From Eubacterium sp. (GTDB lineage: Bacteria > Bacillota > Clostridia > Lachnospirales > Lachnospiraceae): a stretch of DNA of 48,636 nucleotides. Below the pieces are notes generated by a model, which saw nothing but the letters and a program-made list of their open reading frames with translations, was not told where the DNA came from and made no database searches. The DNA lies in assembly GCA_017477505.1 (NCBI GenBank), contig JAFUVQ010000030.1:1-48636 (forward strand). Direction: 5' to 3'. This document shows, in pieces, positions 6,661 through 24,073 of the stretch. Both the position numbers and the translations under genes were made by a program. Positions within the stretch are counted from its first letter, which is position 1. Each line of letters starts with the position of its first letter.

Positions 6661-7170
6661 AGGAGATAAATGGGGGTATATGATGATATCTGTATCTTCT
6701 GAGTTGTGAAGTATTATGATACTATTCATGTATCCTCCTTTCTGTTGAGGTCTGCAAAACTATCATACGATAAGAGATAAGGAGGGACAATAAATGTCTC
6801 TCCTATCTTTATCTCTAAACTCAGGCCCAAAAAACTTTAGATACCTGACTTTCTCTGGTAAATCCATATGAGGGCATTTTGCGCATGACAAGTGCATATG
6901 CATTTGATTACAATATAGGAAATGCAGTGGGACGTTTTAAACTATATCTGACCTTGGTAGTTAGAATTAAGTGATGAGCTTTGGTAATGAGATTAATTAC
7001 ATTATTTGCGATTTATGCCCATAATTAGAAGGCTGATTATGGATTTGATTGTACTGATATGCTAGAATCAGAAATAGTATCAGTTTTGACAGGCTTTTAA
7101 AAGATTTGCAATATGTATTGAACGATTAATATATTTATATGTTATATGATTACTTATGGAGAATTGTAGT
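6661..7170. other. Intergenic region of about 500 bp
   Basis: AT-rich, with no ORF above about 40 codons that has a ribosome site. It contains one imperfect hairpin (6775-6808) and a TTGACA at 7087-7092 that has only a weak -10 (CAATAT) at 17 bp. I see no RNA gene. It most likely holds the regulatory leader of the large SLH protein plus decayed sequence. Confidence 0.5.
6775..6808 (+). terminator. Possible terminator hairpin
   Basis: AGATAAGGAGGGACA pairs imperfectly with TGTCTCTCCTATCT around a short AT loop (one bulge, one G-U). The following TTTATCT is a poor T tract, so terminator function is uncertain. Confidence 0.4.
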
Positions 7171-10100
7171 ATGAGGAATATGATTAGAAGGTTATTTGTT
7201 ATAGTAATGATTCTATGTATCTCTGTATGTTTTTTTAATACTAAGGCACTTGCTGATGGAGATTCTATGGAATTAGATACCAGTATTATTGATAAAAGAA
7301 ACGAAGAGTTTACTACTGAATATGGGTTTAGCTATACAGATCTGTTTAATGTTTATACTGGATGTCTAACAGCTGATACAAAACCTTTGCAGATCGTGAA
7401 ATCGGTTGGAAGGGATGCGGCAGTATCATTATCAGAGACAGATTTGTTTTTTGCAGCTGTTGAAGAGGCAGTATCTAACAATTCTTTAGCTTTGGCAAAT
7501 GTATATAAAATGAAGTTTGCTGAGTTTTCTGACAAGATTTCAACACCATATGAAGACCAGCTTGATGATCTTACGATTCTTTATATTAATGAGGTATTTG
7601 ATAACGAGACTACATTAAGCAATGCAATCAGAAAAGTAGAGGGTGTATATTCGAATTATAGGAAAACCCATACTTTAAAAGATGTGAAAGATGCATTCGA
7701 CAGGGACGATTTTAATCTATTGATTGATGCCTACTATAAAGATGTTACCACTGAAAAGGAATTAAGGGAAATAAAAAAGGCGGTGATGGACAGGGAATAT
7801 TATATCAGCCTGTCTTTAAAAGATGAAATCAGTATAGCCGAATACTATATTTTTTTGTTGGAATCATATCATGTCAATTATGAAGTGATTAAGACTCTGT
7901 ATGATTTAATACCTAAAGACACCGTATTATCGGAAGGATTGGAAAGATATCTGAATAATTACAGTAAACTATTCCTGCCTAAATTCTGTGATTATATTGC
8001 AAATGATGTTGTTATCGATAAGATTAGTGATCTGTTACTCTCAAATAATCTTCAATGGAGTTATGCTTATGGTGAATGGGCAGTACTTAAAGTAATAATA
8101 AACGTGATCGATTACTTTTATGATAAGCACATGCCATCTGCTACTGATATTACAAGGTATTATTTACTTGATGGTTTTCTGTCGTCGATAGATATGGGAT
8201 TGACGGAACTTAGAAAAAGCATGTATGAAGATATCAGTAGTCAAGGGAAGGTGAGTTTAGAAAAAATCAATAATTATGAGTTTCTGTATAATACTTATAT
8301 TAAAACAATGGTAATGTATTTAGAGGCTGCACTGGATATAACAAAATCAAGCTTGTTTTCCAGTTCGGAAACTAATCAGCAGGCTCAGATTAGAATTATC
8401 ATGAACTCACTGAAGAGAGACTATAGTTATGAGTATTATATAGAATTATGCGCTAAAATGGCACTCGGAGAGGATATTGACGAAAGCAGTTTTATTATTT
8501 CGGAGATAACGTGTACAGTAAAAACCGGTCAGACAGTTAATATCTTTTCTCGAAACGGAAAAGAAGTTTGTGAATATAAAACAGAGAACGGAGAGATAAC
8601 TGAACTGCCGGTATTTCAAGGCAAAGTTTTTGGGGGAATAGAACTGAGTGGAGGGACTATTAATATTGAATCAGATGTGAAGTCTTCATATCTGTTGATT
8701 CATAGCGGAACTGTAAATACAAATGGACACAGTTTAGAGTCTGATAGAGTTGACTTTTTAAATGAATATCGCAGTACTGGAAAGCTATACTTGTTTGGGA
8801 CTGGAAGCGTTATTTCCAAACGAGATAGTCTCATAAGACAGGTTCAGGTGATTGGCAACGGAGGAATAATCAGAAGTGATAAAGGCATTAAAACTGAGTC
8901 TGATGATAAGTATGGAGGGGTGAGTTTTAATGATTGCACTCTGATTGCAAAGCAAGGGCTCAGCTGCGGGGGTACAAACTACTTTCATAACGTCTCAATA
9001 ACCGGGGATACAGGGGGAGGAACTTTAAGCTGTTATGGAACCGTAAAGGTTGAAGGTAAAGCGGGAGGCAACTACTACATTCAGGAAGATTCATGTATTG
9101 AGGCAAATAGATTTGCTGTTAATTCCCTGTATAATTATGGCGGAACGATTATTTCTAAAGGGGATTTTTCATACAGTGGGCGAGTAACAAGCGAGAGTGA
9201 TAAAGCACGCTTTGTTGTCTATGGTAATCTGTATGCTAATGGGTATACGGCTGGTTGGTGGGCTTTAGGTTTATATACGTGTTTTCTGCAAGCCGGGACA
9301 ATGGAATTGTATGGTGATTTATACGGAGTGGAAGATGTGGATGGAAAGACAATGTGGGGCGGACCATATTATTATTCATTCAGTTCTACAAGTGACTTTG
9401 TATTAAAACTCTGTGGAAATAAAAAACAAAAGCTTATTCTTCCGGGTACTTCCGGAAGTATATCACATTTATGCCTGGAAAATCCTGATGTTGATATTCA
9501 GACGGATTTAGAAATTGATAACCTATACGGCAATATGAATTTGGATTATGTTACTACTGATATAGAGATCAAAAATGCTAATGGTTATACTATTAATACT
9601 TCAGGCATAACTACTGGCTCAATATCTCTGACAAATGGTAACTACAATCAAGTTGGTGATGCTAATGGACACATAACTATCAAGGACGGATTGGGAAATA
9701 TCCGCGGAGATGTGAAAAAAGGTATTACATTTTCAAATGGTGAATGTAACATAGATGGAAATATAAATGGAAGTATATCTGTCAGTGATGGAAAGCTTTT
9801 TCAAAATGGGACGGGGAATAGTATTGATGTTGATTCCATGGGCCTTAATAATTCTCAGATAGTATCATGTAGTGATGTAACTATTAATGGCGGATTTGGA
9901 ATGTCAGGAACGTCAGTATTGGATGTAAATAAGAATCTTTATATTTACGGGTATACATATTATTATACCACTGGCTGGTCATATACCAGATACTATCTAT
10001 TAAAGGGTGGAGAAATAAGAATATCCGGAGATCTGATTACCGGCAAAAATGAAGATAACCGTACAGCATTTTATATGTATGGAGACAGTTCGTTAGTTTT

Positions 10101-13100
10101 TAAGAATGGAGATCACTACGTCAGCAATGAGAACAATATCACAATTAAAAATCTCAAGCAGGAGCAGGAATCTGTAATTAAGTTTAATAATACAGGAGTT
10201 AATATAGATACTTTATTATCTGATATAGTTGTAGATTCAAGTGAAATAAATATAAGCGCATGGAACGACTATTCATTGTTAAATATAGATTCCGAGGATA
10301 TAGAAATAAACTTTCCTAGTGATTATATTAAGTTTTCAGGAGTTAATGATGACGAAAAGCATATAAAGTATTATTCAAAATGTAATATTGAAGGAGATGC
10401 CAGGATGTATAGAAGTAATGGCATCAGTAATTTAGATATGTATTCAGGGGAGTCTTGTGATATCAACTTTTCTGGAACTGCTATTGCATCTATGTTAGGT
10501 ATGAATGATACAGATGATGTAATAAAGGTTGAAAATAATAAAACATTATCATCTATAAAAACAGGTTCTGAGATGGTAGCATTAACTCTTGAAGAGCCAA
10601 AAGTTGATTCTTCACTAAATGTTAATGTATTAAGCGTTAAAGAGTATTGTAAGAAATATAATCATAAATTTGATGATGGGGTTGTAGTAATAGATTCAAC
10701 ATGTTCTGAAATGGGAACAAAACTATTTACTTGTGTGAGATGTAATACTACAAAGAACGAAAGTATACAAAAGAAGCCGCATAATACATATAGTTTAGAG
10801 GCTGTAGCTCCTACCTGTACATCAGATGGCTTGACTGAAGGCAAAAAATGCCTTGATTGTGGAACAGTTACGGTCTCTCAAAAAGTAGTTAACCGATTGG
10901 GACATGATTGGGACGAAGGAGAAGTAATAAAAGAGGTTTCCTGTACAGAAGATGGTATAATCCTTTACAGGTGTACAAGATGCGATTCTAAAGAAGAAAG
11001 AATAGTGACTAAGCATCATGATTATCAACCGATTGAGGGTACGTACGTAGAGCCTTCGTGTACAGAGGGAGGTAAAGAGGCTGATCGAAAATGCACTAGG
11101 TGCGGGGATATTATTGAAGGAGGGGCAATTAATCCCCTTGGTCATAATGAAGTGACAGATGATGCAGTAGAACCAACGTGTACCGAACCTGGACTGACAG
11201 AGGGTATTCACTGTTCCAGATGTAAAGAAATCATAAAACCGCAGGAAGAAATAAAGGCGCTTGGGCATGAAGAAGTGATAGATGATGCAGTGAAAGCATC
11301 ATGTACCGAACCCGGGCTGACAGCAGGAATACACTGTTCCAGATGCAAAGCAATTATAAAGGCTCAGGTGGAAAACAAGCCAGCACTTGGACATGATTGG
11401 GATTCTGGTAAGGTTACTAAAGAAGTTACTTGTACTGAAGATGGTGAAAAGACAATTACCTGTAACAGGTGTAATGAAACTAAGAAGGAAATAATAAAGG
11501 CAGCCGGACATATAGAAGAAGAAATTCCGCCAACTGAAGCAACTTGTGTTAAGGAGGGTAACACAAAAGGGAAGAAATGCTCAGTCTGTGGTGAGATACT
11601 GGATGCACCCAAAGTCATAAGTAAAACCGAGCATTCATGGAGTAAGAGGGGGACATGTATAAAAGCTCCGACATGTACGGAAGAAGGCATCATTATTTTC
11701 AGCTGCAGTATATGTAATAATACAAAGATTGAAAAAATGGCACCTCTTGGTCATGATGAAATTGTAAGTAACCCGGTAGAACCTACATGTACTATGCCAG
11801 GGTTAACTGAGGGGAGACGTTGTTCAAGATGTTACGAGGTCATTAAAGAACAGGAGGAAATACCTGCACTTGGTCACGATGAAGTAACTGTCGATGAGGT
11901 TCCTGCAACCTGTGCAGAATGTGGTTTCACGGCGTATACGAAGTGTAATAGATGCGGCGAGAATATTACGGAAGGCACAATAATTGAAAAAACTAAGGGA
12001 CATATTTGGGATTCTGTAATAATTTCTGAACCTACAGAAATACATACCGGTCTCAGAAGATACACCTGCCGTGTCTGTGGAGAGACAAAGGAAGAGGTGA
12101 TTCCGGCTATAGAAGCAGAAAATCCGCTTGAACCTCTTACGGTAGAAACTATTGAAGGAGTACCAGCTGAAATACTTGTATACAATTCATGTGTAATCAG
12201 CAAAACATTTAACAGAGAAATTGAAAATGGAGAAAGCTTTGAATGGCTGGCAATTGATGAAGTGAACTCAGATGGCTCAGAAGTAGTTCATGATGGTTCA
12301 GCTTTTGACGTACTGAATTGTGGAAGAATCGCAGTAATAGACGGTGATACCATTATAGCATTGGGACCAGGTAAGGTAAGACTTGCATATTATATAAACG
12401 GTATTCTGACCAAAACAGATATAGTAATTGAGGTGTTTGACAGATTCTATACGCCTTCAGTTCCTGAGCTGGAATCAGTTACATCTAATTCTATATCAGT
12501 AAAACCAATGGAGGGATGTGTTTACTCGAAAGATGGTATTAATTGGCAGGAGTCAAATGTATTTGAGGATCTTGAACCGGAAACAACGTATTCAATAGTT
12601 GCTAAAAAAACAGCAAAAGGATTCACTAGGGAGAGTAATCCAAGTAAAGCACTTGTAGTTAACACTGTTAAAGAAATCCCAGATACTTTCTGGCCGTTTA
12701 AGGATATGCATCCTGAAGACACATTAGCAGAAGAAGTAAGATATGCGTATGACAGAGGTATAGTGGGCGGATTTGGAAAACCTGATGAAAATGGTCTTGT
12801 AAACTATAAGCCGGAACGGAATGTTACCAGAGCACAATTTGCAATAATGCTTTACAATATGGCGGGTAGACCGGAATATGAATGTAATGTAGCAGACTTT
12901 GATGATGTACCGGTAGGAGCTTCAGGATACGATGAAATCATGTGGGCATCAAGCAATGGTATAATCAGTGGTTTTTCCGGATACGTATTCAAGCCTGATA
13001 ATCCTATCAGCAGGACCCAAATAGCGATCATGCTAAAGAAGTATGCAGATTATATGGGATATGAAGAAATGTATGCTGCTGATACAGATACTAATCTGGA

Positions 13101-13281
13101 AAACTATGCTGATTATAACGATATTAAAGAAGGATCGCATGAGTACCTTAAGTGGGCAATAGATCAGGGGGTTTTATCTGGTACTTCGAGCGGAAAGCTT
13201 AATCCAAATAAGCCTGCTAGAAGGGATCATTGTGCTGCGTTTCTTGCAAGGTTCTATAGCAGGTTTATTGAAATGAAGTAA
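7171..13281 (+). CDS. Giant secreted S-layer-homology protein with beta-helical region and twelve His/Cys repeats
   Basis: 2036 residues from ATG 7171, chosen because GGAG at 7158-7161 is 9 nt upstream (ATG 7156 lacks a ribosome site). A signal peptide occupies residues 1 to about 29, with hydrophobic core FVIVMILCISVCFF and cleavage near ALA-DG. A helical domain runs to about 450. Gly/Asn/Ser-rich strands (about 470-1150, e.g. GGTINIESDV) suggest a right-handed beta helix. About 1165-1640 hold twelve tandem units of about 40 residues, pattern GH-x-W ... T-C-T-x2-G ... C-x2-C. Eleven have one His and three Cys; the last lacks the first Cys. About 1660-1835 look like Ig/FN3-type linkers. Three SLH domains (about 1841-2033) anchor it to secondary cell-wall polymer. 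Probable cell-surface adhesin or scaffold; ligand unknown. It is flanked by non-coding DNA and a strong terminator. Confidence 0.9.
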   Translation: MRNMIRRLFVIVMILCISVCFFNTKALADGDSMELDTSIIDKRNEEFTTEYGFSYTDLFNVYTGCLTADTKPLQIVKSVGRDAAVSLSETDLFFAAVEEAVSNNSLALANVYKMKFAEFSDKISTPYEDQLDDLTILYINEVFDNETTLSNAIRKVEGVYSNYRKTHTLKDVKDAFDRDDFNLLIDAYYKDVTTEKELREIKKAVMDREYYISLSLKDEISIAEYYIFLLESYHVNYEVIKTLYDLIPKDTVLSEGLERYLNNYSKLFLPKFCDYIANDVVIDKISDLLLSNNLQWSYAYGEWAVLKVIINVIDYFYDKHMPSATDITRYYLLDGFLSSIDMGLTELRKSMYEDISSQGKVSLEKINNYEFLYNTYIKTMVMYLEAALDITKSSLFSSSETNQQAQIRIIMNSLKRDYSYEYYIELCAKMALGEDIDESSFIISEITCTVKTGQTVNIFSRNGKEVCEYKTENGEITELPVFQGKVFGGIELSGGTINIESDVKSSYLLIHSGTVNTNGHSLESDRVDFLNEYRSTGKLYLFGTGSVISKRDSLIRQVQVIGNGGIIRSDKGIKTESDDKYGGVSFNDCTLIAKQGLSCGGTNYFHNVSITGDTGGGTLSCYGTVKVEGKAGGNYYIQEDSCIEANRFAVNSLYNYGGTIISKGDFSYSGRVTSESDKARFVVYGNLYANGYTAGWWALGLYTCFLQAGTMELYGDLYGVEDVDGKTMWGGPYYYSFSSTSDFVLKLCGNKKQKLILPGTSGSISHLCLENPDVDIQTDLEIDNLYGNMNLDYVTTDIEIKNANGYTINTSGITTGSISLTNGNYNQVGDANGHITIKDGLGNIRGDVKKGITFSNGECNIDGNINGSISVSDGKLFQNGTGNSIDVDSMGLNNSQIVSCSDVTINGGFGMSGTSVLDVNKNLYIYGYTYYYTTGWSYTRYYLLKGGEIRISGDLITGKNEDNRTAFYMYGDSSLVFKNGDHYVSNENNITIKNLKQEQESVIKFNNTGVNIDTLLSDIVVDSSEINISAWNDYSLLNIDSEDIEINFPSDYIKFSGVNDDEKHIKYYSKCNIEGDARMYRSNGISNLDMYSGESCDINFSGTAIASMLGMNDTDDVIKVENNKTLSSIKTGSEMVALTLEEPKVDSSLNVNVLSVKEYCKKYNHKFDDGVVVIDSTCSEMGTKLFTCVRCNTTKNESIQKKPHNTYSLEAVAPTCTSDGLTEGKKCLDCGTVTVSQKVVNRLGHDWDEGEVIKEVSCTEDGIILYRCTRCDSKEERIVTKHHDYQPIEGTYVEPSCTEGGKEADRKCTRCGDIIEGGAINPLGHNEVTDDAVEPTCTEPGLTEGIHCSRCKEIIKPQEEIKALGHEEVIDDAVKASCTEPGLTAGIHCSRCKAIIKAQVENKPALGHDWDSGKVTKEVTCTEDGEKTITCNRCNETKKEIIKAAGHIEEEIPPTEATCVKEGNTKGKKCSVCGEILDAPKVISKTEHSWSKRGTCIKAPTCTEEGIIIFSCSICNNTKIEKMAPLGHDEIVSNPVEPTCTMPGLTEGRRCSRCYEVIKEQEEIPALGHDEVTVDEVPATCAECGFTAYTKCNRCGENITEGTIIEKTKGHIWDSVIISEPTEIHTGLRRYTCRVCGETKEEVIPAIEAENPLEPLTVETIEGVPAEILVYNSCVISKTFNREIENGESFEWLAIDEVNSDGSEVVHDGSAFDVLNCGRIAVIDGDTIIALGPGKVRLAYYINGILTKTDIVIEVFDRFYTPSVPELESVTSNSISVKPMEGCVYSKDGINWQESNVFEDLEPETTYSIVAKKTAKGFTRESNPSKALVVNTVKEIPDTFWPFKDMHPEDTLAEEVRYAYDRGIVGGFGKPDENGLVNYKPERNVTRAQFAIMLYNMAGRPEYECNVADFDDVPVGASGYDEIMWASSNGIISGFSGYVFKPDNPISRTQIAIMLKKYADYMGYEEMYAADTDTNLENYADYNDIKEGSHEYLKWAIDQGVLSGTSSGKLNPNKPARRDHCAAFLARFYSRFIEMK

Positions 13282-13323: not shown

Positions 13324-13365
13324 ACCGCCCTGTCTTCCTTTACGTGGAGACAGGGCGGTAATTTT
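13324..13365 (+). terminator. Strong terminator after the SLH gene
   Basis: Perfect 12-bp stem ACCGCCCTGTCT (13324-13335) with AGACAGGGCGGT (13348-13359), then AATTTTAT. Confidence 0.9.
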
Positions 13366-13607: not shown

Positions 13608-15251
13608 ATGGTCAAAGTAAAGATAGACTACAATCCATATTTGATGGCTTGTAAAGTGGAGTTCAATGGGAAGGAACCTCATATCAATAGTCTTGTTGAA
13701 AAATATGATAAGACTCCTTTGCAGATTTGGATGAACCAAATTCCTCATATTCTTTATGATGAAATGAATGGATATGATTTTGATTTGGAATTTGTCGGTC
13801 CGGATCTTGAATATGAAGATATTGTAGATTCATTTAGGAAAGCTAAAGTATCAGCAGATGATGTAAGATGTAGTCATATTAAGACAATGGAGAAGCGGGG
13901 TGATAAAATGGCCGGAATCACTGCGCTTAATGAATGGATGGATAATAACCGTAATGAACGTTTTGATTTTGACACATTTAAAATAGAGAATCAGGACGTA
14001 TTTGATAATAGTTTTTCACTGGTTATTATTGGAGATATTAAACTTGGTGATTTTTCATTTGATAATACAAATGTGTCTATCGAAGTTATACCTAATGTTA
14101 AGGAATTAGATAATACTGAATTGAAAGATACACCTATTATTATTGAGGCTGAAAGAATGACTGTTCAGGAACTTCAGACTTTGCTTTTTACCATTCTTGA
14201 AGAGAATAGTGATGTTATTGCAGAACAGTTTTTTATTTTTGTTAGGTCTAAGCATAAAATGGAAATGTATCGGAGATTGTTAGAGGATATTGATTTTTCA
14301 AAAACATGCATTATAAACTCAATTTCTGATACTACCTTGAGAAGATATTTTGAATATTATCCCGTTTCCGATTATATCAGAGAGTACTTGTCTGCTATAA
14401 GGAAGGAAGTGAACTCATTAAAATCCGAATTGAGTAAAGAAAAAGATGAAGCTGATAAAGCAAATAGTGAAGTTATGTCCAATATTATGATGATTGAAGA
14501 TCACATATCTACGATAAAGGATTCTATAGTTGAATTGGACAACATTAACAAGACATCAATTACAGTTGATTGGGAGTCGACAAAAAGTGTAATGATGGAT
14601 ATGCTGACTTCGTGGAAAATAAAGAAAACAAAAATTACAAGCTACGAGGAAGCTATAAAACTTGCCGGACAATTTGAAGAAGAAATAAAGCATCAGTGGA
14701 CGAAGTTTATTGAAACAGTTTCGCAGAATACGTCCTGGTATATAAATAGTACGACTGATAATTGTATTGAAATATATGATAAAGCAAAAGAGGTTCACAC
14801 ACCTAAAGATCATATAAACTCTGAATTTGAGAGTTATATAAGTTCATTCGATGGTATTGCCTTAGATCTGCTGAAGATAAAAGAAGAACACTATGAAAAA
14901 CCTAAAGAAGGTTTGTTTAATGCATTTCATAAAGTGATAAATGCAACTAGCGATAATAAAGAAGAAGTACTTGTCACTACTTATTCATGCCAGCAATGGA
15001 GAGAGTGTGCTGTCAGTATAGTTACGCCGGTAATCGATAGAGTTATAGAAGAAAGAAACAAAGAAATTCAAGAACATAGTAATAAAGTATCTCTTGAATA
15101 CTCAGAAAAGCTGATTAAGTTGTTAGATGAAAGAATTGAAGATAAAAACAGATTCTCTGTCCAATTGTCATCAGATATCCAGGAATTACAAAAAGATGTT
15201 GATTGGTTGAATTCATTTTCAGAAAGATTAGAGTCGATAGAAAGGAGTTAA
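13608..15251 (+). CDS. HerA cassette, gene 1: coiled-coil protein of unknown family
   Basis: 547 residues from ATG 13608, chosen for AAGGAG at 13594-13599 with an 8-nt spacer; the earlier ATG 13584 has none. The N-terminal 250 residues form a mixed alpha/beta domain beginning VKIDYNPYLM, with a PLQIWMNQIPHILYDEMN segment. I have the impression of similar N-termini beside ATPase genes in other Firmicutes but cannot verify it. Residues about 265-547 are largely coiled coil (ALSAIRKEVNSLKSELSKEK-type heptads, then a long C-terminal helix). No signal peptide or membrane helix. It lies 4 bp upstream of the HerA-like gene. A scaffold or adaptor role for the ATPase is inferred only. Confidence 0.75.
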   Translation: MVKVKIDYNPYLMACKVEFNGKEPHINSLVEKYDKTPLQIWMNQIPHILYDEMNGYDFDLEFVGPDLEYEDIVDSFRKAKVSADDVRCSHIKTMEKRGDKMAGITALNEWMDNNRNERFDFDTFKIENQDVFDNSFSLVIIGDIKLGDFSFDNTNVSIEVIPNVKELDNTELKDTPIIIEAERMTVQELQTLLFTILEENSDVIAEQFFIFVRSKHKMEMYRRLLEDIDFSKTCIINSISDTTLRRYFEYYPVSDYIREYLSAIRKEVNSLKSELSKEKDEADKANSEVMSNIMMIEDHISTIKDSIVELDNINKTSITVDWESTKSVMMDMLTSWKIKKTKITSYEEAIKLAGQFEEEIKHQWTKFIETVSQNTSWYINSTTDNCIEIYDKAKEVHTPKDHINSEFESYISSFDGIALDLLKIKEEHYEKPKEGLFNAFHKVINATSDNKEEVLVTTYSCQQWRECAVSIVTPVIDRVIEERNKEIQEHSNKVSLEYSEKLIKLLDERIEDKNRFSVQLSSDIQELQKDVDWLNSFSERLESIERS

Positions 15252-15255
15252 GTTT

Positions 15256-18200
15256 ATGAATGAGTTAAAGATTAGAGAAAGTGAAGAGCTTTCTGTAAGT
15301 TCAGAACCCTTAACAATAGAAAATCGACTTGAGATTATTGAAGAGGGAATTAGAAAGAAGTATCTTGCAAGACTAACGGAAATGCAAATATGCCCAATAA
15401 ACGCCATGCTTCCGCTTGAAGAAGATCTTATTGACAATATACGTATGTATAAAGTTACAGAAATGGTTTACCCGAAGGATGAAATAGCTACAGATAAATT
15501 CACTACTGTATTTAATACATTATCAACTTATAATGCATCGATATTTATAATACTTGATTCTGACGGCGAGAAAACTGATTTCTACATCGGTGTCAGAAAT
15601 AATGAAATGGATGAAAAGTATAAAAGATCAACAGTTACTCTTGGAGATACTCTTAAGAATACATTGGTTGGTCATTTTCCGGGCGCAAAGATTGAAAATG
15701 TTGATAGAACAAGTATAGCCACACTTTCTGAAAAAATTATTAATCAGGATAATGTAGCATCTGTTAGTGTTGTAGGAAGCACAAAAAATGAGAAAGAACA
15801 ATCAAATAATCAGTTTGTACAGGGAATAGAAAAACTGGCGTTGTCTATGCATGATAGACAATATATAGGAATAATAATAGCCGAAAACCAATCGCCAAAG
15901 ACTGTGCAATCTTTAAGAGAAGATTATCAAAAAATGTACACAAAACTCTCACCTCTTCAGAAAGTTCAGTTTTCTGATAGTACTTCAGATGGAACGTCCA
16001 GGAGTAAGTCATTTTTTGAGATGAGTGGTAATCAGAAAGCCGCTATGGTTGGTGGCGCAATTGTATCTGTTTTAGGAGCTGTGGGAGGTGCGTATATAGG
16101 TGGAATTGGTGGCGCAAAAGCTGGAGCAGATATGGGAAGATCTATCGGAGCTATGGTAGGAGGAACAGTTGCCGGGCAGTTTAGTAATTTTATATCATCA
16201 CTTGCTCCTTCTGAACAAACAACAAAATCCGTATCAACTAATACTTCCTCCACAACTGAGAATAAGGCTGTCACAGATACCATGCAACTACTTGATGAGT
16301 TGATACAAAAAACAAAAGAATATGATAGCTATGGTATGTGGAATATCGCAAGTTATTTTATTTCCGATGATATGTCTGCAGCTGAAATAGCTGCAAGTAA
16401 TTATCGTTCTCTTATGAATGGAGAGAAGTCTGGCAGGGAACTTTCCGCTATTAATTCATGGAGGTGTAATAACCCTGAGATTATTGGTGACTTCCGTGAT
16501 CTAACAACATATCTTTCAAGATTTATGCATCCAACGTTCTGTTATGGAACATCTGATGAGTTTAATGTATTAACTGATGCGACTACTTCCGTAAGTGGAA
16601 GAGATCTTGGACTCCATATGGGGCTTCCTCGTGAGACGGTTTCTGGACTCCCTGTAATAGAACATGCTGAATTTGGAAAGGAAGTAACAACATATCAATT
16701 ATTTACGGATAAAAAAGAATTACGTCCGGAAGAAAAAATGAGACTCGGAAGAGTTTTTGATCTCGGAAGAATAACAAATAAGATTGTAGAACTTGAGAAT
16801 AAGAGTCTAAATATGCACACATTTATAACTGGGTCTACTGGATCAGGAAAGAGTAATACGGTATATCAGATGCTCAGTGAACTCTATCATGATAATATTC
16901 CATTCCTTGTTATAGAACCTGCTAAAGGTGAGTATAAGGATGTGTTTGGGCATCTTTCGGATGTGAACGTATTCTCTACAAATCCTAATGTGTCGGAACT
17001 TATAAATCTTAATCCATTTAAGTTTCCTAGTTCAATACATGTACTTGAACATGTTGATGGTCTGGTTGAAATATTCAGCGCTTGCTGGCCGATGTACGAT
17101 GCAATGCCGGCATTCTTTAAAGATGCGATGCTCAAATCATATGAATCAGTTGGTTGGGATTTGGGTTCATCGACGTTTGACGGGGAGGATGTTGAATTTC
17201 CGGATTTTGAAATATTAGCTGATGAACTCAATGAACTCATTGAGAATTCAGACTATGCATCTGATATTAAATCAAATTATAGAGGCGCACTTATCACTAG
17301 AGTTAAGTCATTATCTGTTGGTCTAAACAAGTTTATTTTTACATCAGAACAGACACCATATGAGCGTATTTTTGATGAGAATTGTATCCTTGATATAAGC
17401 CGTGTTAAATCCGGTGAGACAAAGGCTCTTATCATGGGAATGATGGTATATATTCTTAATGAGTACAGAGTGGATAGAAAAACTACTAATAATAACGGTC
17501 TGAAACACGTAACTGTCTTGGAAGAAGCTCATAATCTTCTGAAGAATACAACGAATTCACAGTCTGAATTGGTCAGCAAGTCGGTTGAAATGCTCACACA
17601 GACTATTGCAGAAATCAGAACTTATGGTGAAGGTTTTATTATAGTAGATCAGTCTCCTTCATCAGTTGACATATCAGCTATTAAAAATACAAATACTAAG
17701 ATAGTACTTAGAACTCCTGAAGCAAATGACAGGGAAGCTGTAGGACGTTCTATGGGACTTACAGAAAACCAGGTTAATGAAATAGCAAAGCTTCCGGGAG
17801 GTGTTGCAGTTGTCTATCAGAATAATTGGGTTAATCCAGTGCTTACTTTGGTAGATAAGGCACCGGTAAAAGACGTGCCATATCTGAATGAACATCCAGT
17901 GAAGATTAAAACTATAAAGATAGCTCGGAAATCAATTTTAAAAATGCTTATGCATCCATGGATTGGTAAAGAAATGATTTCTGATGAAGAATTGAAATCA
18001 TCCTTACGAGTTATTGAATTATCAAGATCAGAGAGAAAAGAGATTAAAGGGTTGATTTCTGACTATGAATTATTTGCAGGAAACCTCATATGGAAAGAAG
18101 ATGATATGCCTAAACTTCAGAGGTTAATAAAAAGTGTATTAGGTATTTCAGATAAGGATTATGTTCAGATGAATAGTGCAGATGATTTATATAAGCTAGT

Positions 18201-18282
18201 TAGTGGGAAGGTAAGGAAACTGTCAGATAAAGAAATCAAAGATATTTGCTATGTTTTGACATATACAAAGGGGGTAGAGTAG
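15256..18282 (+). CDS. HerA cassette, gene 2: HerA/FtsK-like DUF87 ATPase with internal glycine zipper
   Basis: 1008 residues; AAAGGAG lies 8 nt before the ATG. Residues 1-240 are an alpha/beta N-terminal domain (FYIGVRNNEM, VGHFPGAKI), reminiscent of VirB4/HerA-type N-termini. Residues about 258-310 form an extreme glycine zipper (GGAYIGGIGGAKAGADMG), suggesting membrane insertion or helix packing. The motor is complete: Walker A GSTGSGKSNT (526-535, Lys532), a following strand FLVIEPAKGEYKDVF typical of HerA/VirB4, Walker B HVTVLEEAHN (about 751-760) and a C-terminal sensor region DQSPSSVDISAIKNTNTKIV. The C-terminal 130 residues are helical. Such hexameric motors pump DNA or, in VirB4, drive secretion. 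Its stop codon directly abuts the next ATG. Confidence 0.88.
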   Translation: MNELKIRESEELSVSSEPLTIENRLEIIEEGIRKKYLARLTEMQICPINAMLPLEEDLIDNIRMYKVTEMVYPKDEIATDKFTTVFNTLSTYNASIFIILDSDGEKTDFYIGVRNNEMDEKYKRSTVTLGDTLKNTLVGHFPGAKIENVDRTSIATLSEKIINQDNVASVSVVGSTKNEKEQSNNQFVQGIEKLALSMHDRQYIGIIIAENQSPKTVQSLREDYQKMYTKLSPLQKVQFSDSTSDGTSRSKSFFEMSGNQKAAMVGGAIVSVLGAVGGAYIGGIGGAKAGADMGRSIGAMVGGTVAGQFSNFISSLAPSEQTTKSVSTNTSSTTENKAVTDTMQLLDELIQKTKEYDSYGMWNIASYFISDDMSAAEIAASNYRSLMNGEKSGRELSAINSWRCNNPEIIGDFRDLTTYLSRFMHPTFCYGTSDEFNVLTDATTSVSGRDLGLHMGLPRETVSGLPVIEHAEFGKEVTTYQLFTDKKELRPEEKMRLGRVFDLGRITNKIVELENKSLNMHTFITGSTGSGKSNTVYQMLSELYHDNIPFLVIEPAKGEYKDVFGHLSDVNVFSTNPNVSELINLNPFKFPSSIHVLEHVDGLVEIFSACWPMYDAMPAFFKDAMLKSYESVGWDLGSSTFDGEDVEFPDFEILADELNELIENSDYASDIKSNYRGALITRVKSLSVGLNKFIFTSEQTPYERIFDENCILDISRVKSGETKALIMGMMVYILNEYRVDRKTTNNNGLKHVTVLEEAHNLLKNTTNSQSELVSKSVEMLTQTIAEIRTYGEGFIIVDQSPSSVDISAIKNTNTKIVLRTPEANDREAVGRSMGLTENQVNEIAKLPGGVAVVYQNNWVNPVLTLVDKAPVKDVPYLNEHPVKIKTIKIARKSILKMLMHPWIGKEMISDEELKSSLRVIELSRSERKEIKGLISDYELFAGNLIWKEDDMPKLQRLIKSVLGISDKDYVQMNSADDLYKLVSGKVRKLSDKEIKDICYVLTYTKGVE

Positions 18283-20157
18283 ATGACACTTGATTCATTC
18301 GAGAATAACTCTTTGAAAGTAGAAGGATTAGACATAACAGATAAAATGAGCACATTCAATAAGTCGTTTGATTCTAACGTAAAGAATGTTGATGGGAGAT
18401 TTGTTAATAATAGTTTTTATATATCAAAGACTCAACTTTCAGATTGGTTAGGCATAGAAAATCAAATGCTTTCTAACATTTCTATGGATTCAGTATTAGC
18501 TAATGTGAAACAGATGTATGAAGGCGTTGAATTGCCAGGTGGAGAAAAGACACTTGGAATCAAAGAAGTTGGTAATTGGAAAGGTGACATAAGCGATAAA
18601 AGTATTTTAAAAAGTAGAGCTGGATACGATGCTGAAATAATAAGCACGGCTAAAGAGAATATCATTAATAAGATATTTGGCAATGATATTACAACTTATA
18701 GAGCTGATGACCGACCGGATTTATTTCCCAGAAACGATCAATATGTTGACAAAATTAGAGTAGATTCTAATGGTAACATAGTAGAAAGAATTCAAACTAA
18801 ATTTATTGGAGATGATGGGGCTGACTGTGCAAAACAATTAATGGGTAAAGACTTTGATAAATATTATGAAGATGGAAAAGTTGATAAGGTTGAGATACCA
18901 AAGGATTACTATAAAGATGCTAAAAACTACTATGAGACTAGAAGAAATAAAGTTCAGGAACAAATTGACAGTGCTATAAAGAGAGGTGATTCTGAAACCC
19001 TTGCAAAGAAACAAGCGGAATTAGATCGAATCAATAAAAGGGATAGTATGCTTGAAAAGAGTAATACTACTTCAACTGAAGCGATACAGGCTGCTAAGCA
19101 TCCTAAACAATATGCCGCAAAACAGATGGCTTCTGCTGCTATAAAAGAAGGCTTCGATGGTGGAGTAGAGCAAGCAAAGACTGCTATGATGATTACAGGA
19201 GCTATTTCTACAGTAGATAATCTTTCAAAATATATTGAAGGAGATATTACCGCTGTGGATGCTGTAAAGAATATAGCCATTGATACGGGAACGGCAGGAG
19301 CGGCAGGTTTTGGAGTTGGGTTTATTTCAACTTCCACCGGTGCACTGATGAAGAGCTCTAGTAATAAATTAATACAGGAGATGGGCTCTGTTGGAAATGG
19401 GTGCATTCCTACAGCGGTTGTTTCATACGGTATTGAGGTTCATGATGTTGTCATAGATTACGCAAAAGGTAATATAGATAATTCAGAATTTGTGGATGAA
19501 CTTGGAAGAGGAGGTGCAAAAGTTGTTGGAGGTACTATAGGTGGAGCGTTAGGTGGATACCCGGGTGCTACGATTGGCAGTGTAGTGGGTGAAGCAGCAT
19601 ATGACTCTGCTAAATATGTTTCAGATATTGTTGTGGATTTGGCTCTGGGTGAAAAAGAACTTAATCAGTTACCGACTGAAGTAAAAGCAGCTATAGAGAA
19701 TAAAGCAGACGAAACAGTTGAAAAAGCTGCTAATGAAATTAATAAACTGGTCGATAAGGCTGATGAGGTAAAGAAAATAGCAGAATATGTTGCAGAAGAG
19801 ACTGGAATAAATGATACTTTAACTGAAATTAAAGAAAATGTTGAAGATGTTGTTGAAGAGACAGCAGGCAAAACCGTAGAAACGGCAACGGATTTAGAAC
19901 AGTCGGCTAAAGAAATTGTATCTGGGGCAGTAAACTATGCTGTTACATCTGAAGCTTATGTTTCAGTTGTTGAAGCTTGTGAAGGGGCAGTAGAGACTGT
20001 TGCAGATGATTTATCTAAGTTAGAGAAAAAGGCGGTGGAGTATGCTGATAAAGCGACAGATGCGGCTAGTAAATTTGGCGCTGATGCGGTAAGAGATGTA
20101 AAAGCTGCATTTAATGATTTTAATTTAAAGAATTCACTTCCATTTACGTTAGCATAA
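18283..20157 (+). CDS. HerA cassette, gene 3: putative PD-(D/E)xK-like nuclease with glycine-zipper and amphipathic-helix tail
   Basis: 624 residues, starting on the base after the ATPase stop (TAGATG) with GGGGG upstream. Residues about 105-215 resemble a restriction-like nuclease core: Asp156 in YVDKIRV, a turn (DSNGN), then VERIQTKF with Gln171-x-Lys173. This fits the D...(E/Q)xK pattern of Mrr-like members, but it is a pattern call without a profile search. Residues 215-270 are helical. About 333-445 are Gly/Ala/Val-rich with small-x3-small repeats (GGTIGGALGGYPG), suggesting membrane association or a pore-like bundle. The last 170 residues are Ala/Glu/Lys-rich amphipathic helices. With the adjoining ATPase this looks like a motor-effector pair. 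Toxin or secretion substrate are alternatives. Confidence 0.7.
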   Translation: MTLDSFENNSLKVEGLDITDKMSTFNKSFDSNVKNVDGRFVNNSFYISKTQLSDWLGIENQMLSNISMDSVLANVKQMYEGVELPGGEKTLGIKEVGNWKGDISDKSILKSRAGYDAEIISTAKENIINKIFGNDITTYRADDRPDLFPRNDQYVDKIRVDSNGNIVERIQTKFIGDDGADCAKQLMGKDFDKYYEDGKVDKVEIPKDYYKDAKNYYETRRNKVQEQIDSAIKRGDSETLAKKQAELDRINKRDSMLEKSNTTSTEAIQAAKHPKQYAAKQMASAAIKEGFDGGVEQAKTAMMITGAISTVDNLSKYIEGDITAVDAVKNIAIDTGTAGAAGFGVGFISTSTGALMKSSSNKLIQEMGSVGNGCIPTAVVSYGIEVHDVVIDYAKGNIDNSEFVDELGRGGAKVVGGTIGGALGGYPGATIGSVVGEAAYDSAKYVSDIVVDLALGEKELNQLPTEVKAAIENKADETVEKAANEINKLVDKADEVKKIAEYVAEETGINDTLTEIKENVEDVVEETAGKTVETATDLEQSAKEIVSGAVNYAVTSEAYVSVVEACEGAVETVADDLSKLEKKAVEYADKATDAASKFGADAVRDVKAAFNDFNLKNSLPFTLA

Positions 20158-21757: not shown

Positions 21758-24073
21758 ATGAGTCAGAAGGATCAGGTATCAAAAAGAAAAGAAACCTATA
21801 GAAGCGCTGCAAAGAAGGTAAAGCATGACCAAGAGCTTTATGATGCATTCAGAAGGCTCAACAGTGCAATACCTCAGAGAAAGAGAAGGACACCTCTGTC
21901 CGTGCTGGATCTGAGTAATATGGAAACGGCATACAGAAATACCATTAATAAATTAAATGAAAAGATGGAGCAGCTTTCTACAAGGATTGATGAACAGCCA
22001 GCGGGGAACAAGAGGCAGATTGCTGCCAAAAAGAAGATGGAGGCTCAGTACGAGTATTATACCAAGCTCAGAAAGACACTCAGCAAGGATCTTAAGGCAG
22101 TCACTGTATGTAAGAAACTTCCGGAACAGCAGCTTCCGAATGTTACACAGTTCTATGAAAATGCCCGTTCCGAGAGGATGGAATATGACATTAGAAAGGC
22201 ACCCAAATTTGGTGGTGGTATCAATACAAGATACAGAATAACAACTCCTGATAAGGATGGGTTCTTTACTGTTTCGAAAAAGGGTATGTCTGATAGTGAG
22301 AAGAAGGAAATGGAAATAGATGAGATAAACAGAAAGTACGGAAACAAATCCATCTTCAACACCTATAACAGAAATAATATCCGTAATCTTGCTCAAATAC
22401 TTCTTAGGAATGACCGGATAAAGAACATGATTCTCGATAAATATGATCTCTTTCTGACAAAAGCATCCCGCTCTATCAGTCGAAGGGAAATTAAAGATGA
22501 GTTTATAGATTGTATTAATAAAGGCAATGTAACTGATGAGGCGAAACCTGTATTTGCAAATATAATCCAGGAAATCAAACCCGGTGAGATGTTATCACTT
22601 TTTGAGTATATGCAGGCAGCTCATAGGATAGACAATGGATCCAGTCTCAATAGAGATATCGGAATCAATGCGAAATCAAAGCAGGATAAGCGAAACTGTG
22701 CCATGACTATGCTTTCAGATATGCTTGGCAGAAAGGATCTTCTGGCATCTTCAACAAACCTGCAGATAAGAGATCCCGAAACAGGAAAGATTATAAACGG
22801 AACATTTATGGAAACTGCAGAGGGAGTGGATTGTCAGAGCGCTAAAAAAGAGGACCTGGAAAAGTTCAATCAGCTTACTCCGGAAAAGATTGAAGGAAGT
22901 CTTCAGCTTAAGAAGGATATTGCGGATCTGCAGATTTTGGACTGGCTTGGAGGTAATTCCGACAGAAATCCCAGAAACATGATGTATAAGTTTGACGAAG
23001 CCGGAAATTTGTGCGGGCTTGTCGGAATAGATAATGATCTTACATTTGGCAAGGAGGATCACGCAAAAAACTGTGAAGGTATTTATCTTGAAAATATGAA
23101 TGTCATCACAAAGGAGATGGCTGATAAGGTCATGAATATGAACAGAGAAGAGTTCAAAAATATGCTTTTCGGTTATGACCTTTCCACGGCTGAAGTAAAC
23201 AGAGCTTTAAAGAGATTGGATGATCTTCAGACAAAGCTTGAGAATGATAAAGAATATTTTATGGGCATGCCGCCGGAATATATAGAGGATGGCAGAATAA
23301 GAATTGTAGATGATGAGCAGCTTGGAAATATTTCATTCTACAAGAGTCTGGCAGGCGGAAAAATGAAATTAAATCCGGAAATGGAAATTCAGGGCAGAAT
23401 GAAGAAAAACCTTTTCACTTCAATTTCCGAATATGGAATTGATGCAAAGGGATACGACAACAGTATTACTACAGCAACCGAAAGTATATTGAAGGATAAC
23501 GTAAATGTACTGCGTGAGGCTACACTCCTGGATAAAAGAATTGATGCCATGGATGCATCTGAAGCAAAAACATATAGAACTCATCAGCCATTCCGAGATA
23601 TGATCACAGCTATGAAAGGTGTCAAGAATACATATGATTTTGTAAGTAACGGCTTAGTAAAACCTAAGCATGACGGAAGTGTAGAGGTCAGTGAGGAAAA
23701 TATTCAAGCATACAAAAAGGCTCTTGAAGATGCTGTTAAGAAGTGTGATGATTATATGGCTACCAAGGATGAGGCAAAGATTATGAAGATGTCAAAAACC
23801 AGCAATGGTTACGAACGTTATATGCTCGCCAGGGAATCCAAGGAAGGAATACAGAAAACCCTTGAAGCTCTTAACGGTATGTTCGAGAAGAGTGAATTAA
23901 TTGATGACTACAGATACAAAGTTGAAAGGCATAAGGCAGTCTGTCAGAATCAGATGAAGAAGATAGAAGAAAGGGATAACCCTAAAAGGGAGGAACTGCT
24001 TAAAAAGGCCAAAGAAGTGAATCAAAAACGTGGAGTCAATATGAATAAACCGGAAGTTGCAGTCTATTTATAA
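21758..24073 (+). CDS. Large helical protein with an atypical lipid/protein-kinase-like catalytic motif
   Basis: 771 residues, no signal peptide or membrane helix. An N-terminal helical/coiled-coil region (1-130) is followed by a central region whose motif ILDWLGGNSDRNPRNMMY (about 393-410), then GLVGIDNDLTFG (422-433), matches the catalytic loop and metal site of the PI3/4-kinase, actin-fragmin kinase and HipA-like fold. Asp402 is the catalytic base, Asn407 and Asp425/Asp427 bind metal. His of DRH is replaced by Asn. The C-terminal 200 residues are helical, with a C-x2-Y ... G-x2-R pattern that also appears in the protein at 1-1703. I infer an ATP-dependent kinase of protein or lipid. Family name unknown; a strong terminator follows. 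Confidence 0.75.
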   Translation: MSQKDQVSKRKETYRSAAKKVKHDQELYDAFRRLNSAIPQRKRRTPLSVLDLSNMETAYRNTINKLNEKMEQLSTRIDEQPAGNKRQIAAKKKMEAQYEYYTKLRKTLSKDLKAVTVCKKLPEQQLPNVTQFYENARSERMEYDIRKAPKFGGGINTRYRITTPDKDGFFTVSKKGMSDSEKKEMEIDEINRKYGNKSIFNTYNRNNIRNLAQILLRNDRIKNMILDKYDLFLTKASRSISRREIKDEFIDCINKGNVTDEAKPVFANIIQEIKPGEMLSLFEYMQAAHRIDNGSSLNRDIGINAKSKQDKRNCAMTMLSDMLGRKDLLASSTNLQIRDPETGKIINGTFMETAEGVDCQSAKKEDLEKFNQLTPEKIEGSLQLKKDIADLQILDWLGGNSDRNPRNMMYKFDEAGNLCGLVGIDNDLTFGKEDHAKNCEGIYLENMNVITKEMADKVMNMNREEFKNMLFGYDLSTAEVNRALKRLDDLQTKLENDKEYFMGMPPEYIEDGRIRIVDDEQLGNISFYKSLAGGKMKLNPEMEIQGRMKKNLFTSISEYGIDAKGYDNSITTATESILKDNVNVLREATLLDKRIDAMDASEAKTYRTHQPFRDMITAMKGVKNTYDFVSNGLVKPKHDGSVEVSEENIQAYKKALEDAVKKCDDYMATKDEAKIMKMSKTSNGYERYMLARESKEGIQKTLEALNGMFEKSELIDDYRYKVERHKAVCQNQMKKIEERDNPKREELLKKAKEVNQKRGVNMNKPEVAVYL

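What the first reader, a model, noticed from the sequence alone, without database searches (positions are those of the whole stretch)
13608..20157. Candidate undescribed three-gene HerA-type motor and putative nuclease cassette with two glycine-zipper proteins
Three genes separated by 4 and 0 bp encode a coiled-coil protein, a 1008-residue HerA/VirB4-like ATPase with intact Walker A and B, and a 624-residue protein with a D...QxK pattern. Both the ATPase (about residues 258-310) and the third protein (about 333-445) have unusually long glycine zippers, a feature of membrane insertion or pore-like bundles. Known HerA defence pairs use other partners (NurA, Sir2, DUF4297), and I do not recognise this partner set. 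The block is more AT-rich than its neighbours and lies between terminators, like an accessory cassette. A membrane-tethered DNA motor with a nuclease, or a contact or secretion system, are both possible.
Basis: partly seen in the sequence, partly recalled or inferred. Interest (0 to 1): 0.8.

Follow-up and report, generated by a model that had tools for sequence, protein, structure and literature searches.

The report
Dynamin-derived HerA motor with swappable nuclease
Three adjacent genes in a gut bacterium form a cassette that looks like a weapon or a defence: a relative of dynamin without the GTPase, a HerA-type motor, and a protein whose nuclease part is exchanged between relatives; I found no description of this combination in the papers I could search.

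Summary
In detail: three genes 4 and 0 bp apart, intact HerA-type ATPase, conserved QxK region, real glycine zippers. The trio is conserved: of 50 related contigs, 45 have a gene 1 homologue upstream and 42 a third gene of recognisable nuclease type. Gene 1 is more than a coiled coil: its profile matches dynamins of sister operons (hhalign probability 99.5) but lacks their P-loop. Gene 3 behaves like a polymorphic toxin: one C-terminal zipper module carries PD-(D/E)xK-like (here), NS_2 or LHH nucleases, and nuclease type changes at least 17 times on a quick ATPase tree. Loci without the zipper module mostly have an immunity-type gene next door (10 of 11), zipper loci rarely (1 of 31), but this rests on about four evolutionary changes. 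Sister plasmid operons in E. coli and Treponema read dynamin, dynamin, small gene, ATPase, nuclease, SMI1; Lactococcus is similar. Best reading: a membrane-linked conflict system, probably anti-invader or abortive; export of antibacterial toxins is a serious rival. Ten searches of an open-access library found no description. The nuclease fold and all functions are untested.

The parts
13324..13359 (+). terminator-like hairpin ahead of the cassette (14-pair stem)
   Evidence: 2 sites found against 3.0 expected in shuffles, so presence alone is not significant
13608..15251 (+). gene 1, 547 aa: dynamin relative without a GTPase P-loop (alpha/beta head, about residues 1-240, then long helical stalk 242-546)
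13608..14327 (+). head of gene 1: conserved N-terminal domain (NPY...F.G...P..NS...W...EMNGY.F) plus about 90-100 residues where sister dynamins have a GTPase of about 280
14331..15245 (+). helical stalk of gene 1
   Evidence: predicted secondary structure; profile 241-541 against Lactococcus dynamin 427-756, only 17.2 bits with a bias of 26.3, so weak by itself; extends the match to residue 397
15256..18282 (+). gene 2, 1008 aa: HerA/DUF87-family ATPase
16027..16185 (+). glycine zipper of gene 2 (residues 258-310), hydrophobic, best 19-residue mean 1.82
   Evidence: insignificant PDB match to SlyB (E 0.15)
16831..16854 (+). Walker A of gene 2 (526-533)
17509..17532 (+). Walker B of gene 2 (752-759, VTVLEEAH)
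18283..20157 (+). gene 3, 624 aa: modular nuclease-type effector
18283..18411 (+). N-terminal segment of gene 3 (residues 1-43, FNKSFDSNVKNVDGRF); shared with NS_2-type third proteins; proposed docking signal (inferred)
   Evidence: (profile hits 12 NS_2-type proteins at E 5e-6 or better; LHH/WHH types only 0.01 or worse); a looser motif of my own has no chance control
18592..19050 (+). PD-(D/E)xK-like nuclease domain (residues 104-256; E118, D156, Q171, K173)
   Evidence: fold not confirmed
19132..19692 (+). C-terminal glycine-zipper module (residues 284-470)
19960..20154 (+). conserved C-terminal segment of gene 3 (residues 560-624), ending NDFNLKNSLPFTLA

Best explanation
A horizontally moving conflict cassette. 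Gene 1 is a dynamin-family scaffold that has lost its GTPase and probably keeps dynamin's self-assembly or membrane association (inferred). Gene 2 is a ring-forming HerA/VirB4-like ATPase held at the membrane through its glycine zipper (ring and membrane inferred). Gene 3 is the effector: an N-terminal docking segment, an exchangeable nuclease, and a glycine-zipper module that tethers or restrains it (roles inferred). On a trigger such as phage or plasmid entry, or membrane disturbance, the gene 1/gene 2 assembly releases or feeds the nuclease so that nucleic acid in the same cell is destroyed, either the invader's or, in an abortive response, the cell's own. Shown by computation: the homologies, the conservation, the domain swapping, the immunity-type partners in relatives. 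Inferred: trigger, membrane role, target, and that the action is inside the cell.
For: Gene 1: Foldseek's first 15 PDB hits hold 13 dynamin-superfamily chains (best E 1.2e-3, none at or below 0.001, their TM-scores at most about 0.2); the gene 1 profile hits sister-operon dynamins at 4.9e-26 (Lactococcus), 2.6e-20, 1.6e-19 and 1.3e-18 (E-values for a small target set); hhalign probability 99.5, E 2.9e-23, over residues 3-397; 0 of 37 gene 1 proteins has a P-loop in the head. Motor: DUF87 9.7e-12, HerA 4d2i 1.9e-9. Effector modularity; at least 17 changes of nuclease type on the ATPase tree. WYL regulators in two of three dynamin-bearing plasmid operons (not seen). 103 flanking proteins hit 135 PADLOC models, 103 length-matched control proteins 22; neighbours include Cas12a, SngB/SngC-like and AbiLi-like genes. 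The trio occurs in Synergistaceae MAGs, whose envelope is two-membraned (recalled), and no fourth gene family recurs beside the trio in more than 5 of 50 loci. 30 of 31 zipper-module loci have no recognised immunity gene next door, which is hard to square with toxins fired at kin.
Against: No functional data. Immunity-type genes (SUKH/SMI1, YezG-like, DUF6985) beside the nucleases in related loci are the hallmark of exported polymorphic toxins, and a T4SS coupling-protein model passes its cut-off on a short part of gene 2. The defence-neighbour comparison uses redundant models (many for one Cas12a), only 103 of 222 eligible neighbours, different taxa for test and control, and the control too holds a type I restriction enzyme and mad3/mad8 hits; of 10 neighbours I picked for a closer look 4 had no PADLOC hit. 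With default filters the gene 1 profile did not hit the E. coli dynamin; with filters off it did (7.2e-13), the Treponema one only at 3.5e-4 and L094, L098, L099 and L101 not above threshold. The gene 3 model is poor outside about residues 100-275 (pLDDT 55.8 overall) and its fold search gave nothing significant. The zipper/immunity exclusion is not significant once relatedness is allowed for.
Confidence: 0.46

Rival explanations
1. A minimal toxin-export system: the ATPase works like EssC or VirB4, threading polymorphic nuclease toxins through the membrane, helped by a dynamin-like protein; the glycine zippers help insertion into the target membrane, and immunity genes protect kin.
For: Nuclease swapping on a constant carrier; adjacent SUKH, YezG-like and DUF6985 genes in relatives; TrwB_AAD_bind above its cut-off on a short part of gene 2; best NCBIfam match of the ATPase is CedD, 1.8e-29 but far below its cut-off, a CedB paralogue of an archaeal DNA-import system with homology to part of the VirB4 N-terminal domain (PMC11868833, abstract); glycine-zipper toxins are known among T7SS LXG effectors (PMC10434224 and PMC12744356, title and start of abstract in the listing).
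Against: No LXG-type trafficking domain among the 19 Pfam families found in 56 third proteins; no fourth gene, so no cell-wall or outer-membrane partner, recurs in more than 5 of 50 loci; 30 of 31 zipper-module loci lack a recognised immunity gene.
Confidence: 0.32
2. A capture system like those proposed for DndH and Orc/CDC6-HerA operons: the motor pumps invading DNA to the nuclease, which cuts it directly; gene 1 positions the ring at the entry site.
For: HerA-nuclease pairing and mobile context resemble the 'HerA/FtsK capture' theme (PMC10853773, sections 22 and 26).
Against: None of the partners listed there (Orc/CDC6, D5 helicase, wHTH) showed in the family scans of the trio; immunity proteins would not be needed for a nuclease fed only invader DNA; NS_2 nucleases act on RNA as well as DNA by family name.
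Confidence: 0.15
3. Plasmid or element maintenance, or part of a conjugative element, with the nuclease as an addiction or exclusion factor.
For: Some copies lie on mobilizable or conjugative plasmids.
Against: No transfer gene family recurs beside the trio in more than 5 of 50 loci; only 43 of 72,556 plasmid records match at all, 8 of them over 80% of the protein.
Confidence: 0.05

Closest known systems
HerA defence pairs (HerA-Sir2, HerA-DUF4297, HerA-NurA; pairs recalled)
   Same: HerA-fold ATPase next to an effector; PADLOC HerA profile hits gene 2 at 4.1e-23
   Different: Long N-terminal region and glycine zipper in the ATPase; NCBIfam anti-phage HerA models far below cut-off (45 of 800 bits); partners are a dynamin relative and a swappable nuclease
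[quoted passage not shown] 2012, PMC3482391, passages seen)
   Same: Constant regions joined to interchangeable nucleases, with SUKH and YezG-like immunity genes in relatives
   Different: ATPase and dynamin relative in the operon; in the window class the nuclease sits in the middle with a C-terminal zipper and no immunity gene next to it; no known trafficking domain found
HerA/FtsK capture systems (Rakesh et al. 2024, PMC10853773, sections 22 and 26 read)
   Same: Mobile operons joining HerA/FtsK motors with nucleases
   Different: None of the partner sets described in those sections matches this one
Bacterial dynamins (LeoA, IniA, Campylobacter dynamin pair)
   Same: Fold-search neighbours of gene 1; three plasmid sister operons carry two annotated dynamins each
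   Different: Gene 1 has no P-loop and a shortened head
Type VII secretion ATPase EssC and LXG toxins
   Same: HerA/FtsK-clade ATPase with toxins; some LXG toxins have glycine zippers (listing)
   Different: No WXG/LXG family in the scans of the trio or of 56 third proteins

Membership tests
HerA/FtsK superfamily (gene 2) | DUF87/HerA domain with Walker A and B | tested here: met
   Pfam DUF87 45.9 bits, cut-off 23.2; Walker A invariant and EEAH of Walker B invariant in 48
Anti-phage HerA (NCBIfam NF042943/NF042944) | score above curated cut-off | tested here: not met
   45.1 of 800 and 37.3 of 850 bits
CedD | score above curated cut-off | tested here: not met
   102.8 of 600 bits
T4SS coupling protein (TrwB_AAD_bind) | full-length match to the domain | tested here: not met
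   passes the cut-off (25.5 of 20.5 bits) but only profile positions 7-61 of 387 match
Dynamin superfamily (gene 1) | homology to a dynamin beyond the GTPase | tested here: met
   hhalign probability 99.5 over residues 3-397; separate stalk match weak, 17.2 bits with bias 26.3
Dynamin superfamily (gene 1) | GTPase domain with P-loop | tested here: not met
   no head P-loop in 37 of 37; one chance match at residue 389 of L051
PD-(D/E)xK nuclease (gene 3) | alpha-beta-beta-beta-alpha-beta core with acidic and Q/ExK residues | tested here: inconclusive
   predicted element order and conserved E118, D156, QxK fit; no Pfam or significant fold match; the core definition is recalled
Polymorphic toxin system | constant region with exchangeable toxin domains | tested here: met
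Polymorphic toxin system | adjacent immunity gene | tested here: not met
   window: next gene is MazG, 163 bp away; in relatives 11 of 42 scored loci have one by my labels
Polymorphic toxin system | export out of the cell | not testable with these tools
   needs a secretion assay
T7SS | WXG/LXG substrate and EssC-type ATPase | tested here: not met
   no WXG/LXG hit; FtsK_SpoIIIE below its cut-off, 22.1 of 24 bits
Known anti-phage systems (PADLOC) | full gene set of a named system | tested here: not met
   HerA and mad8 hits to gene 2 only; none to gene 1; gene 3 weak ZorA/LmuB, E 0.017 or worse

The most novel reading that the evidence does not exclude
A previously undescribed class of membrane-based conflict system in which dynamins, or here a GTPase-less dynamin, team with a HerA-type motor to hold and deploy exchangeable nuclease toxins, and in which a C-terminal glycine-zipper module takes the place of the immunity protein as the built-in restraint.
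Probability: 0.35. Interest if true: 0.88.

Novelty: new variant of a known kind. Interest (0 to 1): 0.72.

Why it matters
It would tie together three themes usually studied apart: bacterial dynamins (mostly of unclear purpose), HerA motors and polymorphic nuclease toxins. It gives one testable answer to what some bacterial dynamins are for, offers a natural GTPase-less dynamin, and suggests a way to keep a toxin harmless without an immunity protein.

Tried and rejected
Gene 1 as a plain coiled coil: rejected. Gene 3 as a partition or conjugation protein: no match in Pfam, NCBIfam or PDB sequences. Phage origin: 2 of 50,697 phage records match, both unannotated faecal contigs; the viral-contig collection was not scanned. 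Sister operon in E. coli: 1 of 5426 genomes, in a search that finds near-identical DNA only. Zipper against immunity: the Fisher p treats related loci as independent; the independent-pairs test has at most 4 pairs and cannot reach significance. The list of immunity-bearing loci used there was set by me: one search gives family counts and the row of L061 only, so SUKH for L063, L064, L065, L069, L072, L077 and L085 is assigned by likeness (the count of 7 fits), L068, L080 and L050 by position and likeness; L046 (DUF6508) and L038 (no family) were scored as without. By position alone (same strand, within 60 bp, at most 200 aa) 6 of 31 zipper rows have a small downstream ORF (window counted, L081 not in that tree but also positive). 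Rows dropped before the count: L083, L084, L043, and L042, L051, L054, L057, L067, where no ORF follows. L075 fell below my zipper threshold there although it has a weak match. G160, the only same-genus genome in the family sample, has no match to genes 2 and 3, but its FdhD is only 43% identical, too distant for an empty-site comparison.
Full report
Observation. GxxxG is far in excess in the ATPase and in excess in the third protein. The composition contrast is modest and only an upstream terminator-like hairpin was found. The flanks are ordinary: a 2041-residue S-layer-homology protein upstream, MazG and FdhD downstream.

Conservation. One scan of named genome contigs gave 50 loci with relatives of the ATPase, 46 of them at 60-87% identity. 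In 45 of 50 a gene 1 homologue was found by phmmer (not in L057, L078, L083, L084, L085); in L038, L059 and L068 it is split into two ORFs. Third genes sort as PD-type 19, NS_2-motif 13, LHH 5, WHH 4, AHH 1, and 8 unassigned (L043, L050, L051, L057, L074, L075, L083, L084; three of these were not scored or lack a third gene). PD was assigned by profile, the others by motifs I chose; the Pfam tally over 56 third proteins agrees in kind: Endonuclea_NS_2 in 16, WHH 7, LHH 5, Colicin-DNase 7. Hosts are Lachnospiraceae and other Bacillota, Synergistaceae, Atopobiaceae and Coriobacteriaceae, and rumen MAGs labelled Oxalobacter and Bacteroidales, where binning error is possible. In samples the strong ATPase match is uncommon: 11 of 200 family genomes at E below 1e-150 (39 of 200 at E up to 1e-3, many with matches confined to part of the ATPase) and 5 of 398 phylum genomes at E up to 1e-60, the window's own genome counted in both. 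No other gene family recurs beside the trio in more than 5 of 50 loci (341 neighbouring ORFs, all-against-all).

Gene 1. The AlphaFold model (pLDDT 85.8) has an alpha/beta head and a long helical stalk. Foldseek's first 15 PDB hits include 13 dynamin-superfamily chains, with weak E-values and low TM-scores. Sister operons strengthen this: in E. coli pTW10590_133, Lactococcus pB26B and Treponema pTS2 the ATPase follows two genes annotated as dynamins plus one or two small genes; Pfam Dynamin_N was found in the three of these six that were scanned. The gene 1 profile matches the second Lactococcus dynamin in its N-terminal domain (73 bits) and weakly in its stalk (17 bits, high bias), and profile-profile comparison gives probability 99.5 over residues 3-397. 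Not every dynamin matches: the E. coli one is hit only with filters off (7.2e-13), the Treponema one at 3.5e-4, and L094, L098, L099 and L101 not above threshold. In the alignment the dynamin P-loop falls opposite a part of gene 1 without one, and about 280 residues are reduced to about 90-100. No gene 1 protein of 37 has a head P-loop. Of 13 sister loci read (L087, L088, L090, L091, L093-L101), 8 have dynamin-type partners (L095 judged from P-loop and profile, L090 from annotation and P-loop), 2 other P-loop GTPase-like genes, 1 a relative of gene 1 without P-loop, and 2 none.

Gene 2. A DUF87/HerA ATPase. Its best NCBIfam model, CedD, is far below cut-off; TrwB_AAD_bind passes its Pfam cut-off on a short stretch. 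Of 63 ATPases examined, sister loci included, 44 have a 19-residue mean hydropathy of 1.6 or more in the N-terminal part, in some at another place than the zipper.

Gene 3. About residues 100-275 are predicted with confidence; the order helix-strand-strand-strand-helix-strand and conserved E118, D156, Q171, K173 fit a PD-(D/E)xK nuclease, but no family, sequence or fold search confirms it. L078, which also lacks gene 1, lacks the QxK residues. Domain exchange is direct: the third proteins of sister Synergistaceae loci L059 and L060 are 75% identical over 258 C-terminal columns and unrelated in the nuclease part; window and L038 share only the first 40 residues and the zipper and tail, although their ATPases form one clade with L037 at SH-aLRT 100. 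The zipper profile is met behind PD, NS_2 and LHH (L065, L066) nucleases; the N-terminal profile is met in PD and NS_2 types and only doubtfully in others. On a quick tree of 63 ATPases, with 22 of 59 inner branches open and long sister branches, the fewest changes of nuclease label are 17 (labels assigned by me).

Immunity. Among 18 genes I picked from behind third genes, Pfam finds SUKH/SMI1 in 7, DUF6985 in 3, DUF7832 in 2, YezG-like in 1 and DUF6508 in 1. Within the main clade, loci whose third gene has the zipper module carry a recognised immunity gene in 1 of 31, those without in 10 of 11. The pattern rests on about four changes on the tree. L074 and L075 keep a zipper-type protein with no recognisable nuclease.

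Context. Of 222 eligible flanking proteins I gave 103, those nearest the trio; they hit 135 PADLOC models (25 shown), against 22 for 103 length-matched proteins from 17 arbitrary contig ends of the same bacterial family. Redundant models inflate the first figure, and the sets differ in taxa. Named neighbours include Cas12a and, among 10 picked, SngB/SngC-like, AbiLi-like, MkoA-like and PD-T4-6-like genes, 4 of the 10 having no hit.

Interpretation. I favour an intracellular, membrane-linked anti-invader or abortive system, because of defence-type neighbours, presence in two-membraned hosts without further conserved partners, and absence of recognised immunity in 30 of 31 zipper loci. Export of antibacterial toxins is the main rival, because swapped nucleases with immunity partners are its hallmark. 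Neither is tested.

Literature. Ten full-text searches of the open-access library, passages of PMC3482391, PMC6768887, PMC12839542 (with part of its reference list), PMC10853773, PMC13092281 and PMC7159879, sections 22 and 26 of PMC10853773, and the abstract of PMC11868833 showed no operon joining dynamin, HerA and a swappable nuclease. Most subscription papers, and preprints, are not in that library and no supplement was read, so prior description cannot be excluded.

Noticed in passing
window 21758-24073 (+): 771-residue protein with a weak PI3/PI4-kinase-like motif (Pfam PF00454, E 0.0011, below cut-off); possibly a divergent kinase.
   Followed up: partly
window 7156-13281 (+): 2041-residue protein with three S-layer homology stretches and repeated cysteine-rich units of the CTxPGLTEG..CSRC type.
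   Followed up: partly
L103:1719-3278 and L104:3822-5390: The same PD-type nuclease and zipper profiles (E about 1e-26 to 1e-30) are met in two family genomes that have no ATPase match at E up to 1e-3, beside a small TerB-looking protein (by eye) and a 335-residue protein alike in both loci.
   Followed up: partly
L060:10930-12546 and L067:4180-5565: NS_2-type nuclease in which the usual GH of the motif reads GD, perhaps inactive; the motif's role is recalled.
   Followed up: no
L099 and L100, upstream of the ATPase: In two relatives the dynamins are replaced by other P-loop GTPase-like genes (L099 scanned).
   Followed up: partly
L094 and L101: Relatives in which the ATPase is preceded by an M48-peptidase-looking membrane protein (by eye) and followed by a protein whose start resembles gene 1 by eye only (profile E 0.43 and 1.1); in L094 it carries a Big_2 domain.
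   Followed up: no
L092:1110-7874: Distant Photobacterium relative pairing the ATPase with a DUF2357 protein, 3.5 kb upstream of a Csm6 gene.
   Followed up: no
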